64,000 nt of DNA, from positions 1,116,001 to 1,180,000 of the forward strand of contig CP076040.1 of NCBI GenBank assembly GCA_014529675.2, read 5' to 3'. Both the position numbers and the translations under genes were made by a program. Every line of letters starts with the position of its first letter. Position 1 is the first letter of the stretch. Source of the DNA: Opitutia bacterium ISCC 52. Lineage in GTDB: Bacteria; Verrucomicrobiota; Verrucomicrobiia; Opitutales; UBA2995. The notes beneath the pieces were generated by a model that was given only the letters and a program-made list of their open reading frames with translations, had not been told where the DNA came from and did not search any database. Of the stretch, positions 1,161-22,990 are shown in pieces.

Positions 1161-1336
1161 AGTAGCACAGGCATCTTGCCTGTGTGTATTTCTAGAACCT
1201 AAACTGGAAGAATGACTTGAGGTTCGGATAAGGATGAGAGTGCCGTCGTACGTATTTTCTCATTTGAGGTGCAATCAAACCAACCGGTGCCTAAAGCTTG
1301 ATCGAGTAAAACACAGGCAAGATGCCTGTGCTACTT
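1161..1336. repeat. Facing pair of GTAGCACAGGC palindromic repeats
   Basis: Two copies of a short hairpin unit face each other. The first (about 1161-1184) reads AGTAGCACAGGCATCTTGCC followed by TGTG; the second (about 1311-1336) is its reverse complement, ending in GCTACTTT. Each copy is a hairpin by itself (CACAGGC/GCCTGTG), and together they make a long inverted repeat around about 125 bp of unique DNA. The same family recurs at 22864-22990 and, degenerate, near 11175-11197. The pair lies between the ends of two converging genes and could act as a bidirectional terminator or be a mobile REP-like element. Confidence 0.8.
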
Positions 1337-16495: not shown

Positions 16496-18019
16496 ATGAA
16501 CTTATTCGATTTTAGTCACCAGAAGATATGGTTTGTAACCGGAAGTCAGCACCTGTACGGCCCTGAAGCTTTGAAGCAGGTAGGAATGAACTCCCAAGAG
16601 GTGGCTGAAACGCTGAATGCAGCACCGTCTATTCCCGTTGCTATCACTTACAAAACGATCGGGGAGACACCGGCGGAGATTCGCGGAATCATAAATGATG
16701 CCAATCACGATGCGAACTGCATTGGCCTTATCTTTTGGTGCCACACCTTTTCTCCAGCCAAGATGTGGATCCTGGGGTTAAAGAATCTCAACAAACCTTT
16801 TCTCCATCTTCATACTCAGTTCAATCGAGATCTCCCCTGGGGTGAAATCGACATGGATTACATGAACCTCCATCAGGCAGCCCATGGAGATCGGGAGTTT
16901 GGTTTTATCAATGCCCGCATGCGCAATCGTCGCAAAGTGGTTGTTGGGCATTGGCAGGATTCAATCGTTCAGGAAGAGATCGGTGTATGGTCGCGTGCTG
17001 CTCGTGGATGGGCTGATTGGCAGGGAGCTCGCTTTGCCCGTTTCGGCGACAATATGCGTTATGTGTCTGTAACCGACGGTGATAAAGTTTCGGCGGAAGC
17101 GCGCTTTGGCTATGAAGTCAATGGATACGGTGTGGGTGATTTAGTTGAACATGTGAATGCCGCTTCCGATGCGGACATCGATGCCCTTTGTGCTGTCTAT
17201 GATGATCAGTACCAAGTGGTGGAATCTCTCTGCAAAGGTGGCGACCGCCACGATTCGTTGCGTGAAGGTGCTCGTATCGAAGTAGGACTGCGGTCCTTTC
17301 TCGAGGCAGGAGATTTCAAAGGATTTACCACCACCTTCGAGGATTTGCACGGTTTACGTCAGCTTCCAGGGCTGGCTGTGCAACGGCTTATGGCCGATGG
17401 CTATGGATTCGGTGCTGAAGGAGATTGGAAGGCTTGTGCATTGCTTCGTTTGATGAAGGTGATGGGGTATGGTCAGAAAGGTGGTACTTCTTTTATGGAG
17501 GATTACACCTACCATTTGGATCCTGCTGGAAACAAGGTACTCGGCTCGCATATGCTTGAGATCTGCGAAACGATTGCGGATGGCACACCTTCCTTGGAAA
17601 TCCATCCGCTTGGTATTGGTGGTAAGGAGGATCCCGTTCGTTTAGTCTTCAATACACCTGCAGGTCCTGCAGTGAATGCGACCATCGTGGATCTTGGAAA
17701 CCGTTTTCGTCTGGTAGCGAATGAGGTGGATGTTGTTGCTCCTGACGAAGACCTTCCAAAGCTTCCGGTTGCTCGAACAGTTTGGGAGCCCAAACCGAAT
17801 TTCAAAACTTCAGCCACTGCTTGGATTCTTGCAGGTGGATCTCATCATCCGATCTTCAGCCAAGCCCTGGGTTCAGAAGAACTTGAAGACCTTGCCGAAA
17901 TGGCAGGTATAGAGTACCTATTGATTGATGGAGATTCTTCAATTCGTGGAATCAAAAAAGAACTTCGGACGAACGAAGTGTATTACCATAGCGCGGAGGG
18001 AATTAATCACGCTGGTTAG
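16496..18019 (+). CDS. araA: L-arabinose isomerase
   Basis: The 507-residue enzyme converts L-arabinose to L-ribulose, the first step of the pathway, using a divalent metal. Family landmarks are [18 protein letters not shown] at the N-terminus, [58 protein letters not shown] with the active-site glutamate, [28 protein letters not shown] and [12 protein letters not shown]. The length is normal. It stops with TAG at 18017-18019 and is followed by a perfect inverted repeat before araD. Confidence 0.97.
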
Positions 18020-18049: not shown

Positions 18050-18119
18050 TGTAGGAGCAAATTTATTCGCGACTCGGAACTCCAAGGGCAATTGGGTCGC
18101 GAATAAATTTGCTCCTACA
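18050..18119. repeat. Perfect REP-like inverted repeat inside the ara operon
   Basis: TGTAGGAGCAAATTTATTCG plus CGAC (18050-18073) is exactly mirrored at 18096-18119, giving 24-bp arms around a 22-bp loop. Each arm is itself an imperfect hairpin around the central TTTAT. The TGTAGGAGC start and CGCGA-type end closely resemble REP elements of gammaproteobacteria such as Pseudomonas, which are moved by RAYT transposases. A related divergent pair lies at 21642-21711. Placed between araA and araD, the stem could stabilise the upstream message or reduce read-through into araD. Confidence 0.85.
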
Positions 18120-18147
18120 GAAAAGTCTCTGAATGTAGATAGAAATT

Positions 18148-18882
18148 ATGAGCGATAACTTTTTAGCCCTTCGCGAGGAATGTTGTGAAGCAAACAAGCA
18201 ACTTCCGAAACTCGGAATCGTAGACCTCACTTTTGGTAACGTAAGTGTCGGTGATCCAGAACAAGGTGCTGTGGCGATTAAGCCCAGTGGTGTTCCTTAT
18301 GACTCTCTGACTCCGGATGATATTTGTGTAATGGATTTCAATGCGCAGCCAGATGAGGACTTCGAGATGGATCTTGATGAGGCTAAGCTCTATGGATCTA
18401 TGAGACCTAGCTCAGATACACCGACCCACTTACGATTGTTTCAAGCCTTTCCTCACGTACGTGCCGTCGTGCACACGCACTCCAGGAATGCGACAGCATT
18501 TTCGCAAGCGGGACGTGGTATCCCATGCATGGGTACGACACATGCCGATTATTTCTATGGTGAAGTTCCAGTTACTCGGCGCATGACGCCTGAAGAAATC
18601 AGCCGTCACTATGAGTGGGAGACAGGCAATTTGATCGTGGAGACTTTTGAGGATTTAAACCCTGAGCAGATCAATGCGGTGTTATTGAATGGGCATGCCC
18701 CTTTTGTTTGGGGAACCTCAGGCGCCAAGGCCGTGGAAACGGCTTATGCATTGGAGATCATTGCAGAAATGACCTGGAAGAACCTAATTCTGGACCCCCA
18801 TTCGAATTCACTTCTTCAAGCGCAGCTCGATAAACACTACTTGCGCAAGCATGGTGAAGGTGCATACTACGGGCAAAAATAA
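18148..18882 (+). CDS. araD: L-ribulose-5-phosphate 4-epimerase
   Basis: The 244-residue class II aldolase/epimerase converts L-ribulose 5-phosphate to D-xylulose 5-phosphate, linking arabinose to the pentose phosphate pathway. Visible features are NKQLPKLGIVDLTFGNVSVGD, the phosphate-binding AIKPSGVPYD, SDTPTHLRLFQAFP, the metal-binding histidines in VVHTHSRNATAFSQAG, CMGTTHADYFYGEVPVTR, and VLLNGHAPFVWG. It is slightly longer than the E. coli enzyme. It is separated from araA by 128 bp holding the REP-like repeat and is followed by a terminator. Confidence 0.96.
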   Translation: MSDNFLALREECCEANKQLPKLGIVDLTFGNVSVGDPEQGAVAIKPSGVPYDSLTPDDICVMDFNAQPDEDFEMDLDEAKLYGSMRPSSDTPTHLRLFQAFPHVRAVVHTHSRNATAFSQAGRGIPCMGTTHADYFYGEVPVTRRMTPEEISRHYEWETGNLIVETFEDLNPEQINAVLLNGHAPFVWGTSGAKAVETAYALEIIAEMTWKNLILDPHSNSLLQAQLDKHYLRKHGEGAYYGQK

Positions 18883-18921
18883 ATTTCAGGGCTAGAACTC
18901 ATTAACCATTCTTCAAGAAAA

Positions 18922-18947
18922 GCTGACCATTTCGGTCGGCTTTTTTT
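18922..18947 (+). terminator. Rho-independent terminator after araD
   Basis: GCTGACC and GGTCGGC form a 7-bp stem (one G-T pair) around a 5-base loop, followed at once by a run of seven T. It is 39 bp after the araD stop, fitting the end of the araBAD transcript. Confidence 0.85.
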
Positions 18948-19008
18948 GTGTAGATTGGTAGATGTATTCATTGGACGATTACAGAGGCCTAACTGATCGA
19001 TTGTGAGT

Positions 19009-19932
19009 TTATTGATTCCTTATCCAAGAAAATGGATTTGTGGGATCGTTGCGCAACTCGACCAGTAAAGGGGCTTCCAAGCCACCTTGAGTGAGTTGGA
19101 TGCGTCCTATTCTATTTCCAGCATTGGGGAATGGAAGATCAGCTATCCACTTATGGCCGTCGCCATGAATGAATAGAATGGGTTTCGTAAAATCGGTGCT
19201 CGTTGTTTGGTCCAGGTATTCAATGAGCGGACGGAAGGCCTGTTTCTTATAGACAAATTCATTATTGAGCCGTGACCCTGGGTTGGCATGAGCGAAAATC
19301 ACCGCGGCGAAGGCCTCATCTGAGTGCTCCTTGAATTGGATCTCCAACCAACGGCGGTCGTCTTCAATTCTGGATTCCCATTCCTCCCAGTCGTGGACTT
19401 TTCCATTCACCAGATTTATGCCGAGGAACAGAACGCCATCTCGGATAAATGCGAAATTCTCGTCTCGTTCGGGTTGATGTGCCGCGTCCAAGTCATGAGT
19501 CCAGTTTTCCTCGAAACGCATGAAGTTGGATTCCCAGAGCTTCCATGCTTCTGTAGGATTCGTACAGTCATTCCATTCATTGTCGCCAGGAATGATGAAG
19601 ACAGGGTGGGTGCTGGTTTTTAAAATCTCGGCCACGGACTCATAAACCTCAGGTTCACAAGGTGGTGCCCCTTTTTTAATGTCCCCCACATGGGCAACAA
19701 ATTCGATAGCCGTGTTCTCATTTAAGCGGCTGATTTGCTCTCGTAGGATTACCTTTTCACCCTCTATCTCTTCTGGGGTAAGTCCGTAAGGCACGTCTCC
19801 CATTACCGCGAAGGTGAAGAGGGGAGGCGTTGTGGGTCTACTGGGTTGGAGGCTATCAGTTTGATTGCTGCAACTGGACGAGAGTAGTAGAACAGTTGGG
19901 AGGATGAACCAGTGGATAATTTTGCTACTCAT
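19009..19932 (-). CDS. Lipoprotein metallophosphoesterase
   Basis: I start it at ATG 19932 because MSSKIIHWFILPTVLLLSSSC gives a lipoprotein signal with the lipobox cysteine at residue 21; the frame extends upstream to 19977. The 307-residue product has calcineurin-like phosphoesterase metal motifs in order: FAVMGDVPYG, EFVAHVGDIKKG, VFIIPGDNEWNDC, FAHANPGS and FIHGDGHKW. It should be anchored in a membrane facing the periplasm and hydrolyse phosphoesters; the substrate is unknown. It converges with araD and diverges from the broken enolase gene. Confidence 0.87.
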   Translation of the reverse strand: MSSKIIHWFILPTVLLLSSSCSNQTDSLQPSRPTTPPLFTFAVMGDVPYGLTPEEIEGEKVILREQISRLNENTAIEFVAHVGDIKKGAPPCEPEVYESVAEILKTSTHPVFIIPGDNEWNDCTNPTEAWKLWESNFMRFEENWTHDLDAAHQPERDENFAFIRDGVLFLGINLVNGKVHDWEEWESRIEDDRRWLEIQFKEHSDEAFAAVIFAHANPGSRLNNEFVYKKQAFRPLIEYLDQTTSTDFTKPILFIHGDGHKWIADLPFPNAGNRIGRIQLTQGGLEAPLLVELRNDPTNPFSWIRNQ

Positions 19933-20175
19933 ATATTCTTTTTCTAAGGCATAGGAGCATTCATCTATTTTATCCAAGTCTCCAGCTTGTTTTGTAGTTC
20001 TTCGCGAATTTCAGCTTCTTTCAAGCAGCGTTGGATACAGGTCGACATGGACGATGGACCGGAGCAAACGCTGGCAGCTTCCTTTGAGATTGATTTATTG
20101 GTGATTGCGACAACAATTCACGGTGGCCGTTCTCAAACCCCGAGCGGCGACTTCACCTCTATCACAAAATACCCC

Positions 20176-21462
20176 ATGAATCGTCGAAAATTTATCAAAC
20201 AACTAGGACTTGGCCTTGGTGGCCTCGGCTTCTGGAGTTCCTTTCTTCCTCATCACCTCGCGGCCAAGCTTCCCAAGAATATTAAGATCATTGATCTGAA
20301 GGCTTGGGCGGTCGGTATCGAGGCCAACCAGGTGTTCGTGAAGATCTACACCAATGAAGGTGTGACCGGCTTGGGCGAGGCTTCGGTGCATCGTAAAACG
20401 GGCACAACCTTGGCTGCTTGTTTGGAGTTGAAAGATGTCTTGATGGGGCACGATCCGACACGGATCGAATTTCTCTGGCAGGGTATGTTTCGTTGGCCAC
20501 GCTGGCGGGGCGGTCCCGTGCTGAACACGGCTATTAGTGCGGTGGAGATCGCTCTCTGGGATATTCTGGGTAAACTGCTCGATGTTCCGATTTACAATTT
20601 GCTTGGTGGAGCGGCGCGGGATAAAATCCGCCTCTATATTCATGGTCATACTCGAGAAGACGTTCAGTTTGCTAAGTAGAAAGGATACTCAGCAATCAAG
20701 ACTGGCCCCCCGCTGAATATGGTGAATGATCGCTTGCAGTTCCTGTGGGATTTGACGGCTGCAGTCGATAAATTTGCCGAATTGCGCGATGAGGCCGGTC
20801 CCCATTTTGATATTGCGACGGATGCCCATACCAAACTGACGCCCATTCAATCCCTGCAATATGCAAAGGGCATTGAAGAGTTTCGTCCACTTTGGCTAGA
20901 AGAACCGATCAATATTGAGTTTAATGATTCCCTTCAATGGTTGTCAGAACGGACGACCGTTCCGCTTGCAACGGTGGAACGTCATTTTACTAAGTTCGAC
21001 TTTGAAGATCTCATCAGTCGTCATCTGGTATCGTATGTTCAGCCTGATGTGATTCAGGCCGGTGGTATTTCGGAAACACGAAAAATCTGTGCCATGGCCG
21101 AAGCCCAAGGCATCCAGGCAGCCTGTCACAACCCATCGAGTTTACCTTGCACCTTGGCATCATTGCACGTCGACGCGTGCACACCCAATTGTGTGATCCA
21201 GGAGTCAAAATGGAAATTCGTCGAAGGCCGAACGGGTTGGGAAGATGACATCTTTATGGGCACCAAGCTGAAGTTTAAAGATGGATACGCGATGTTGCCG
21301 GACAAGCCGGGTTTGGGCTGTGACTTGGATGAAAAGATCGCGGAAGAGCATCCGTTCGAGCTGGTCAACCCGCAGACGGTTCTGTCCGCGACTATTGATC
21401 TGAGCGCTTTGATCGGATGTGTGCAAAGATGTGGTGAAGTTAGGATGATAATGGATCCGTGA
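20176..21462 (+). pseudogene. Tat-exported enolase-superfamily dehydratase broken by TAG
   Basis: ATG 20176 gives a Tat-type leader (MNRRKFIKQLGLGLGGLGFW) followed by a mandelate-racemase/galactonate-dehydratase-like protein of about 428 codons. TAG at 20677-20679 interrupts it: EDVQFAK-stop-KGYSAIKTGPP. The second half keeps family landmarks: FDIATDAHTKLTP, RPLWLEEPI, LATVERHFTKFDFEDL, YVQPDVIQAGGISETRKI and AACHNPSS. The frame is unchanged across the stop. The missing residue lies just before the catalytic-lysine strand, and I cannot say what it was. The last 30 residues after HPFEL fit the family poorly, so the 3' end may also be altered. Confidence 0.8.
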
Positions 21463-21641
21463 AGAATATGCTGTAGTCGTTGGTTTTCGATTGCCCACAG
21501 CCTGAAGCCTACATGCCGAGTGTTCCTTCTTCCTGGCTTGGTCACGCACCGACGTGCGCTCCCGCGCCAATCATTCGTTAAGCTCGACATCTAGATCTTC
21601 TCAAGCTGCTCAGATGATACGTCGGAGCTCGTAGGGTGCGT

Positions 21642-21711
21642 TTGTAGGAGCTGCTTTAGCTGCGGTATGTTACTCATATACCTGTCGATCGGCAGCAAGC
21701 TACCTCCTACG
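21642..21711. repeat. Divergent REP-like inverted pair
   Basis: TGTAGGAGCTGCTTTAGCTG plus CGGT (21642-21665) faces TCGGCAGCAAGCTACCTCCT plus ACG (21689-21711), whose reverse complement is CGTAGGAGGTAGCTTGCTGC plus CGA. Both share the GTAGGAG head and GCTGC hairpin arms with the perfect pair at 18050-18119, so they are one family at different stages of drift. The pair occupies part of the 325-bp gap 21463-21787, where nothing else is recognised. Confidence 0.7.
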
Positions 21712-21787
21712 TCTATCTATTGGTCAGGGATAATCGAAGGCGATTGAACGCTTGAACTAGGAGGAGGTCGGGGCATAGCCTTTATAA

Positions 21788-22863: not shown

Positions 22864-22990
22864 ACTAGAGTAGCACAGGCTTCCAGCCTGTGTTTTTTCG
22901 AAAACGCACGATTTTGGATTAAAGGTGATCCGTTCTGGTTACTTGACCCCAAGGAAACTTACACAGGCTGGGAAGCCTGTGCTACTCTAC
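22864..22990. repeat. Second facing pair of GTAGCACAGGC repeats
   Basis: AGAGTAGCACAGGCTTCCAG followed by CCTGTG (about 22866-22891) faces ACACAGGCTGGGAAGCCTGT followed by GCTACTCT (about 22961-22988). The organisation equals that of the pair at 1161-1336, with about 70 bp of other sequence between the copies. The right copy supplies the TAG stop codon of the leftward FG-GAP gene (22982-22984). The pair lies between converging genes, again consistent with a terminator-like or REP-like element. Confidence 0.82.

What the first reader, a model, noticed from the sequence alone, without database searches (positions are those of the whole stretch)
18050..21711. REP-like TGTAGGAGC repeats resembling gammaproteobacterial REP elements
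A perfect 24-bp-armed pair inside the ara operon and a diverged pair 3.5 kb away share the head and hairpin layout of Pseudomonas-type REP/BIME sequences. Such elements depend on RAYT (TnpA-REP) transposases; none is in the window. Their presence in a PVC-type genome suggests either convergent sequence or spread of the RAYT/REP system.
Basis: partly seen in the sequence, partly recalled or inferred. Interest (0 to 1): 0.5.

Follow-up and report, generated by a model that had tools for sequence, protein, structure and literature searches.

The report
REP repeats and transposases in Opitutales
The two hairpin pairs are genuine copies of a small repeat of the kind that RAYT transposases are thought to copy around genomes, here in an uncultured verrucomicrobial bacterium; this kind of system was already known, but right beside one pair lies a second, apparently undescribed, strongly structured repeat.

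Summary
Confirmed. The perfect pair 18050-18119 lies between araA and araD; the pair 21643-21711 is a mixed dimer of two other REP families. In the 4.82-Mb genome TGTAGGAG-N5-TT-N5-CGA occurs 61 times exactly (reversed control 0); I kept 79 units at 49 mostly intergenic sites, many as inverted pairs of about 70 bp. Two RAYT genes carry such REPs beside them; one has Cys for the catalytic Tyr. All six genomes held of the genus carry the repeats (7-150 exact copies), two of a sister genus none. This is a REP/REPIN-RAYT system of Pseudomonas layout (GTAG-1). GTAG REPs in Verrucomicrobia were reported for Opitutus terrae in 2013: new member of a known kind. The genus RAYTs are not nested among the gammaproteobacterial ones sampled, so recent transfer is unsupported; deeper relationships stay unresolved. 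Families A and B have no intact cognate RAYT seen in this genome. By-product: 21398-21615 is a copy of an unrelated repeat of about 218 nt with three stems, at least 37 copies in this genome, usually starting at a gene's stop codon; its stems differ between copies yet stay complementary. No Rfam family matches it.

The parts
18050..18119 (.). REPIN of family A: two inverted REPs, GTAG heads outside, 70 bp, between araA and araD
18050..18072 (+). REP unit family A, TGTAGGAGCAAATTTATTCGCGA
18097..18119 (-). REP unit family A, identical to its partner
21643..21665 (+). REP unit family B (1 mismatch to the layout), left half of a mixed dimer
21689..21711 (-). REP unit family C (1 mismatch to the layout), right half of the mixed dimer
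1162..1334 (.). inverted pair of family D palindromes GTAG[CACAGGCA..TGCCTGTG], a second GTAG-tagged family
22870..22985 (.). inverted pair of family D palindromes GTAG[CACAGGCT..AGCCTGTG]
21398..21615 (+). unrelated structured repeat (family E): P1 21398-21412/21601-21615, P2 21415-21426/21491-21502, P3 21505-21596 (the P3 model matches on the - strand)
   Evidence: stems, P3 model; stem coordinates read off the sequence
16496..18019 (+). araA, L-arabinose isomerase (context)
18148..18882 (+). araD, L-ribulose-5-phosphate 4-epimerase (context)

Best explanation
The pairs are members of a within-genome population of REP/REPIN elements in an uncultured Opitutales genome: non-autonomous, single-strand-folding repeats of GTAG-1 layout (GTAG, GA, 6-bp stem, TT loop, GA tail) copied in trans by RAYT (TnpA-REP, HUH-Y1) transposases. 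Shown: layout, copy number, stem covariation, dimer organisation, intergenic placement, RAYT genes with REPs of the same layout beside them, presence in all six genomes of the genus held, a dimer spacer shared by two loci of one sister genome, and different occupancy of corresponding intergenic sites in sister species. Inferred from the E. coli, Stenotrophomonas and Marinomonas enzymes: the RAYT recognises GTAG plus the hairpin in single-stranded DNA, cuts and rejoins it, and so inserts new copies. In this genome only the RAYT at C1:3698477-3698953 keeps all catalytic residues, and its REPs are of family C or close to it; families A and B look like orphans, so the perfect pair at 18050 is probably a recent relic or is served by a non-cognate RAYT. 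In the ara operon the transcript would form a very stable hairpin (-44 kcal/mol) between araA and araD; an effect on araD expression is possible and untested.
For: 61 exact copies vs 0 control; 79 units at 49 sites; 18 head-to-head dimers with spacers of at most 40 nt and 9 tail-to-tail; partners in the 18 match in 21.6 of 23 positions against 17.2 shuffled, 7 of 18 identical, 0 of 5000 shuffles reach 7. Stem positions pair in 89% of cells against 65% shuffled, maximum 70% of 1000 shuffles (35 distinct units: 86% vs 62%, maximum 73%). 45 of 49 sites have their midpoint outside called ORFs, while 398 of 490 random window positions lie inside one; of 29 sites with both neighbours called, 18 codirectional, 11 convergent, 0 divergent. 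RAYT L032 passes the NCBIfam REP_Tyr_transpos cut-off (82.4 vs 80), L034 matches below it (63.7); L032 aligns to E. coli TnpA-REP 4ER8 (E 2e-4) with HUH, WQ, R and Y in register. REPs beside RAYTs. Among 545 spacer pairs compared, two loci of one sister genome (L250, L259) share a spacer at 96% (one read in reverse complement); the best of 999 null values is 62.5%. Upstream of araD: REPIN in own and G007, single REP in G003, no REP in G004 and G005; at site 2 G004 holds a family-A REPIN between the same two genes. Transcript hairpin.
Against: No movement observed. No exact empty site found: the intergenic DNA is too diverged. No intact RAYT beside a family-A unit was seen in the genus; the only one (G004, L227) is split over two frames at a contig end. 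RAYT L034 lacks the catalytic Tyr. Tail-to-tail dimers show no significant partner matching (378 of 5000 shuffles reach the observed 3 identical pairs of 9). Both window pairs could be old.
Confidence: 0.9

Rival explanations
1. Ordinary 3'-end hairpins (terminators or mRNA stabilisers) that happen to look REP-like.
For: Mostly intergenic, no divergent site among the 29 classified; very stable RNA hairpin.
Against: The same 23-mers recur at unrelated sites with a nearly invariant GTAGGAG head, stand beside RAYT genes and are absent from 2 of 2 sister-genus genomes. No systematic T-run test was made.
Confidence: 0.03
2. Recent horizontal transfer of a Pseudomonas/Xanthomonas-type RAYT-REP system into this genus.
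For: GTAG-GA-hairpin-GA REPs lie beside 20 of 37 gammaproteobacterial RAYT rows by my script's rule, at least one of them doubtful; subclass 2.5-type motifs DHxH, WQ, D; AU test does not reject grouping with gamma (p 0.52).
Against: Six genus RAYTs group together outside the gamma clade (98 and 97; 56 and 94 in the reduced tree); 30-40% identity to Lysobacteraceae RAYTs; some other Opitutales RAYTs carry the same layout; exact motif in 0 of 4 Lysobacteraceae genomes. The tree rows are only the best-scoring loci of capped searches, so a closer gamma relative could be missing.
Confidence: 0.1
3. The repeats are now kept by host selection (for example on mRNA stability between araA and araD) rather than by RAYT copying.
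For: Own and G007 share the REPIN upstream of araD with identical 23-nt units although the spacer differs; no intact cognate RAYT for family A seen.
Against: No REP at that place in G004 and G005; identical units also fit recent copying or conversion.
Confidence: 0.15

Closest known systems
Pseudomonas/Xanthomonas REPs (GTAG-1 of Di Nocera et al. 2013, PMC3733652) and the P. fluorescens SBW25 GI REPIN (PMC3116915)
   Same: GTAG, 2 unpaired bases, short stem, short loop, 3-base tail (section 5 and Table 1 passages); head-to-head doublets of about 70 bp (GI doublet 71 bp)
   Different: Verrucomicrobial host; several stem families coexist, two without an intact cognate RAYT seen here
Opitutus terrae GTAG repeats (PMC3733652)
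   Same: GTAG-type REPs, several families, Verrucomicrobia (same order by name)
   Different: The O. terrae GTAG-20 family mostly has GTGG; the figure with the sequences is not held, so a base-by-base comparison was not possible
TnpA-REP subclass 2.5 / Bertels group 3 (PMC6006769)
   Same: About 151 residues, DHxH, WQ, D for E100, short REPs with the foot 1-2 nt from the stem (passages)
   Different: Y-M-W-x-N-P instead of YI[VI]ANP; described there as mostly Xanthomonad and Pseudomonad

Membership tests
GTAG REP | Unpaired GTAG (or GTGG) foot at one end | tested here: met
   Of 79 units G 79, T 73 (C 6), A 79, G 78 at the four positions
GTAG REP | Imperfect palindrome with covarying stem | tested here: met
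   89% paired vs 65% shuffled
GTAG REP | Many dispersed, extragenic copies | tested here: met
   61 exact copies; 45 of 49 sites outside called ORFs
GTAG-1 sub-layout | Two unpaired bases after GTAG and conserved 3-base tail | tested here: met
   GTAG-GA-stem-TT-stem-GA in families A, B and C; the search pattern itself fixed most of these bases, so only one-mismatch departures could show
RAYT / TnpA-REP | HUH plus Y---NP core | tested here: met
   L032: DHIH and YMWKNP, 4ER8 match E 2e-4. Not met in L034, where Y is C
RAYT / TnpA-REP | Gene flanked by REPs in inverted orientation | tested here: met
   L032: unit on + at 1302 and on - at 1894 around gene 1336-1812; L034: units on both sides
RAYT / TnpA-REP | Specific binding and cleavage of single-stranded REP | not testable with these tools
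   needs purified protein
REPIN | Head-to-head REP doublets, partners alike, copied as a unit | tested here: met
   18 short-spaced head-to-head dimers with partner matching; one spacer shared between two loci of a sister genome
Gammaproteobacterial RAYT clade | Genus RAYTs nested within it | tested here: not met
   outside it in both trees; sister grouping not resolved
Rfam family for element E | Match to any of 4227 models | tested here: not met
   gathering, whole window; E up to 5, 21400-21760

The most novel reading that the evidence does not exclude
The interval's real novelty is family E (21398-21615): an undescribed class of dispersed, roughly 218-nt three-way-junction element, dozens per genome in this Opitutales genus with relatives elsewhere in the order, usually starting at a gene's stop codon. 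Its stems differ in sequence from copy to copy but stay complementary, and it is present or absent at corresponding sites of sister species; it would be either a mobile element that enters or builds hairpins at gene ends, or a 3'-UTR RNA family kept by selection on structure.
Probability: 0.65. Interest if true: 0.7.

Novelty: new member of a known kind. Interest (0 to 1): 0.45.

Why it matters
For the REPs: eight related genomes with none to three RAYTs of this type seen (some broken), REP stems that differ from RAYT to RAYT, and 0 to 150 exact REP copies give a natural test of whether REP number follows an intact RAYT, outside the Proteobacteria. For family E: a high-copy structured element at gene ends with copy-specific stems would be a new kind of bacterial repeat or RNA, testable by RNA-seq on a cultured relative.

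Tried and rejected
Rejected: chance (reversed-pattern control 0 vs 61); simple terminators (RAYT association); recent gammaproteobacterial transfer as the leading reading. AU tests could not place the genus clade with gamma (p 0.52) or with the other verrucomicrobial clade (p 0.51); two further AU tests did not finish. No match for the family-A 24-mer in viral contigs, nor for the E core pattern there, nor for window 21400-21640 in plasmids or phages. Literature: 'repetitive extragenic palindrom' together with 'opitut' gave 0 papers, although O. terrae is treated in PMC3733652; structured-RNA and interspersed-repeat searches showed nothing recognisable for E in the 15 of 128 and 12 of 60 papers listed (titles and starts of abstracts only).

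Limits and dropped rows. Of the 85 hits, 6 were dropped before counting units because no stem was evident by eye (39384, 115202, 934602, 974584, 1964727, 4654550). The family labels A/B/C come from a crude script rule (31/13/35); one C-like unit (101435) is labelled A. The gene calls are codon-bias calls of mine, not an annotation, and its random control uses the window only; 16 of 49 sites lacked a called neighbour on at least one side. The RAYT tree uses only the best-scoring loci returned (at most 30 per genome search, 33); near-duplicate rows (L077, L085, L089, L106, L197), fragments, L033 and L067 were left out; supports are SH-aLRT from a quick search, without bootstrap. In some searches the genomes were samples (387 and 369). 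A further RAYT fragment of G005 (L232, 44 bits) was not assigned.
Full report
What was checked. The window is C1:1116001-1180000 of a single-contig genome of 4,815,747 bases. The closest named matches of its RAYT are uncultured Opitutales MAGs (94% and 55% identity), so the host is very probably Opitutales, Verrucomicrobiota; sister genome G007 appears to be CALJGU01 and G006 CALGUT01, by contig number and length. The first pair is exactly as described: 24-nt arms at 18050-18073 and 18096-18119, 30 bases after araA and 28 bases before araD (coordinates). The second pair, 21643-21711, joins units of two other families.

Copy number. TGTAGGAG-N5-TT-N5-CGA has 61 exact matches, with 0 for the pattern read backwards, and 85 against 15 with up to one mismatch. 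I kept 79 of the 85 (6 without an evident stem dropped), at 49 sites: 20 head-to-head groups, 18 of them with spacers of at most 40 nt, 9 tail-to-tail groups (one with a third unit) and 20 single units. Eight of the head-to-head pairs are exactly 70 bp. In P. fluorescens SBW25 the GI doublet measures 71 bp between the first residues of its invariant 16-mers (PMC3116915, passages).

Structure. Over 79 units the six stem positions pair in 89% of cells, against 65% when the 3' letters are shuffled (maximum 70% of 1000 shuffles); the third pair is the weakest, A-C in 8 and T-T in 8 of 35 distinct units. In head-to-head dimers the partners are far more alike than shuffled partners; in tail-to-tail dimers they are not significantly so. 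In one sister genome (G005) two loci share a spacer at 96%, one read in reverse complement, above all 999 null values; this points to copying of the whole pair.

Placement. 45 of 49 sites have their midpoint outside ORFs called by a codon-bias script, against 92 of 490 random window positions. Of the 29 sites with both neighbours called, 18 are codirectional, 11 convergent, 0 divergent. PMC3733652 describes REPs as lying mainly between unidirectional and convergent ORFs (abstract).

RAYTs. Y1 searches gave 5 hits (PF01797, one below its cut-off) and 6 hits (NF047646, one over its cut-off) in the genome, none in the window. Two belong with the repeats: L032 (158 aa, C1:3698477-3698953) and L034 (177 aa, C1:3665271-3665804), 52% identical. 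L032 has REP units on both sides in inverted orientation, and L034 has units on both sides. L034 reads FCMWNNP where L032 reads YMWKNP; that position aligns with the Tyr of the Y-x-x-x-N-P motif of E. coli TnpA-REP, and the Y115F enzyme is the catalytic-mutant control in PMC8266576 (passages). L034 is therefore probably inactive.

Genus. Exact copies: own 61, G003 7, G004 74, G005 150, G006 10, G007 70; sister genus 0 and 0. RAYTs of this type seen: own 2; G005 3 (L054, L065, L073) and perhaps a fragment (L232); G007 1 (L049); G006 1, interrupted by a stop (L047); G004 2, each split over two frames (L227, L229); none recognised in G003, G001, G002. The REP beside a RAYT differs from RAYT to RAYT: family C or close to it beside L032, L049 and L047; GGGACC/GGTCCC, with a family-C-like unit, beside L073; GGGGCC/GGTCCC, again with a family-C-like unit, beside L034; a family-B-like unit beside L054; a family-A unit (AGTAGGAGCAAACTTGTTCGCGA) beside the broken L227. 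No intact RAYT beside a family-A unit was seen.

Same place, different content. Upstream of araD, own and G007 carry a family-A REPIN with identical 23-nt units and different spacers, G003 a single REP, G004 and G005 none. In G007 araD is on another contig; in G003 and G005 what precedes araD looks, by eye, like remnants of araA. At site 2, G004 has a family-A REPIN between the same two genes (L269; gene order by tblastn). The flanks are too diverged to read exact empty sites.

Origin. In 387 sampled genomes of the phylum 26 have at least one exact match; 12 have two or more: own and 11 genomes of one other family of the order. The other 14 have one each, and most of those single matches show no stem by eye. 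In the RAYT tree (96 rows) six genus RAYTs form one clade (98), 37 gammaproteobacterial rows and one alphaproteobacterial row another (97), and 22 verrucomicrobial rows, most of them from the order and including L065 of this genus, a third (99). In a reduced tree of 74 rows the supports are 56, 94 and 97. REPs of GTAG-GA-hairpin-GA layout occur beside RAYTs of all three: 7 of 7 genus rows (L034), 6 of 47 other verrucomicrobial rows, and 20 of 37 gammaproteobacterial rows, of which only part have the TT loop. AU tests reject neither grouping with gamma nor with the other verrucomicrobial clade. So the layout is old in the family or has arisen more than once; recent transfer is not supported.

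Known or new. REPs of GTAG type in PVC bacteria, with O. terrae highly enriched, are in PMC3733652 (outline, section 5 and passages seen). TnpA-REP subclass 2.5, with short REPs and the foot 1-2 nt from the stem, is in PMC6006769 (passages), there mostly Xanthomonad and Pseudomonad. P. putida, X. campestris and X. axonopodis REPs of the same shape are tabulated in PMC2817692 (passages). This is a new member of a known kind.

Other families in the window. Family D, GTAG[CACAGGCN..NGCCTGTG], forms pairs at 1162/1334 and 22870/22985. A family-D palindrome stands beside Y1 gene L057 of G007 and beside L031 of the own genome, which has one TAA inside.

Family E. A DNA search with the second site brought up a repeat at about 21508-21592, unrelated to the REPs, in five of the six genus genomes, with a 62-base partial hit in G006. 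Aligned (21 copies) it shows compensatory changes. A covariance model finds 37 copies in the own genome (54 candidates scored), 32 in G003, 28 in G007 and 9 in G005, and matches, mostly weaker, in six other Opitutales genomes (37, 7, 4, 4, 1, 1); 10 of 79 genomes in all. On 28 distinct matches 18 of 24 pairs have two-sided changes, and the covariation score is 0.625 against 0.191 shuffled and at most 0.131 when slid (this alignment was fitted to the model, so the counts lean towards it). Around this 92-nt part two more stems appear: in 38 copies the best P1 helix scores 26.5 on average within a copy and 14.0 across copies, and P2 26.4 against 16.4 (304 cross pairs each); the P2 loop is 60-66 nt in 26 of 38; some copies (for example L320, L290, L303) show no good P1. 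P1 positions take three or four, P2 positions two to four Watson-Crick pair types, counted on copies with a good helix. Eleven of 15 long-flanked copies follow a frame open for at least 195 codons whose stop lies 95-113 nt before the 92-nt part, that is at the foot of P1; for the 20 own copies with short flanks a frame of 34-45 codons runs open to the locus edge in 18, a weaker test. The window copy is 21398-21615; its P1 foot lies inside the 3' end of the interrupted dehydratase-like ORF. E is absent at this site in G004, and present in G004 but not in the own genome, G003, G005 or G007 upstream of araD (G007 only partly covered there), so it comes and goes. In G783 and G785 a P2 is present; in the copies read from G773, G775 and G768 the same tip sits on a longer, locus-specific stem without an evident P2. 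Rfam has no match. Mobile element and 3'-UTR RNA remain open.

Noticed in passing
window 21398-21615; L290-L319, L320-L339: Family E, a structured dispersed repeat with a three-stem fold and copy-specific complementary stems, usually starting at a stop codon; at least 37 copies in this genome, no Rfam match.
   Followed up: partly
window 1162-1334 and 22870-22985; L031, L057: Family D, a second GTAG-tagged palindrome family in inverted pairs, also found beside Y1 genes of another clade (L057 in G007; L031 in the own genome, with one stop inside).
   Followed up: partly
genome C1:3665271-3665804 (L034:1324-1857 -): RAYT with Cys in place of the catalytic Tyr but HUH kept; possibly inactive or repurposed.
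   Followed up: partly
window 19987-21462: Dehydratase of the mandelate racemase/enolase superfamily interrupted by one in-frame TAG at 20677-20679; N- and C-terminal halves match the same families.
   Followed up: no
L056 (sister-genus genome G002:C47): A Y1-transposase-like domain lies in frame inside a 1253-residue open frame that otherwise reads like HsdR (name recalled, not tested), with repeated GGGGLESPPSV-coding sequence near it.
   Followed up: no
L304, L312 (G783:C51): Two family-E copies in tandem with a period of about 223 bp.
   Followed up: no
window 21505-21596 with 21643; C1:2704376/2704451; C1:2199711/2199882; G007:C177; G005:C2: In the five cases I noticed, a REP unit or pair sits 47-103 bp from a family-E copy, each time on its gene-downstream side (coordinates); not counted systematically or tested against chance.
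   Followed up: no
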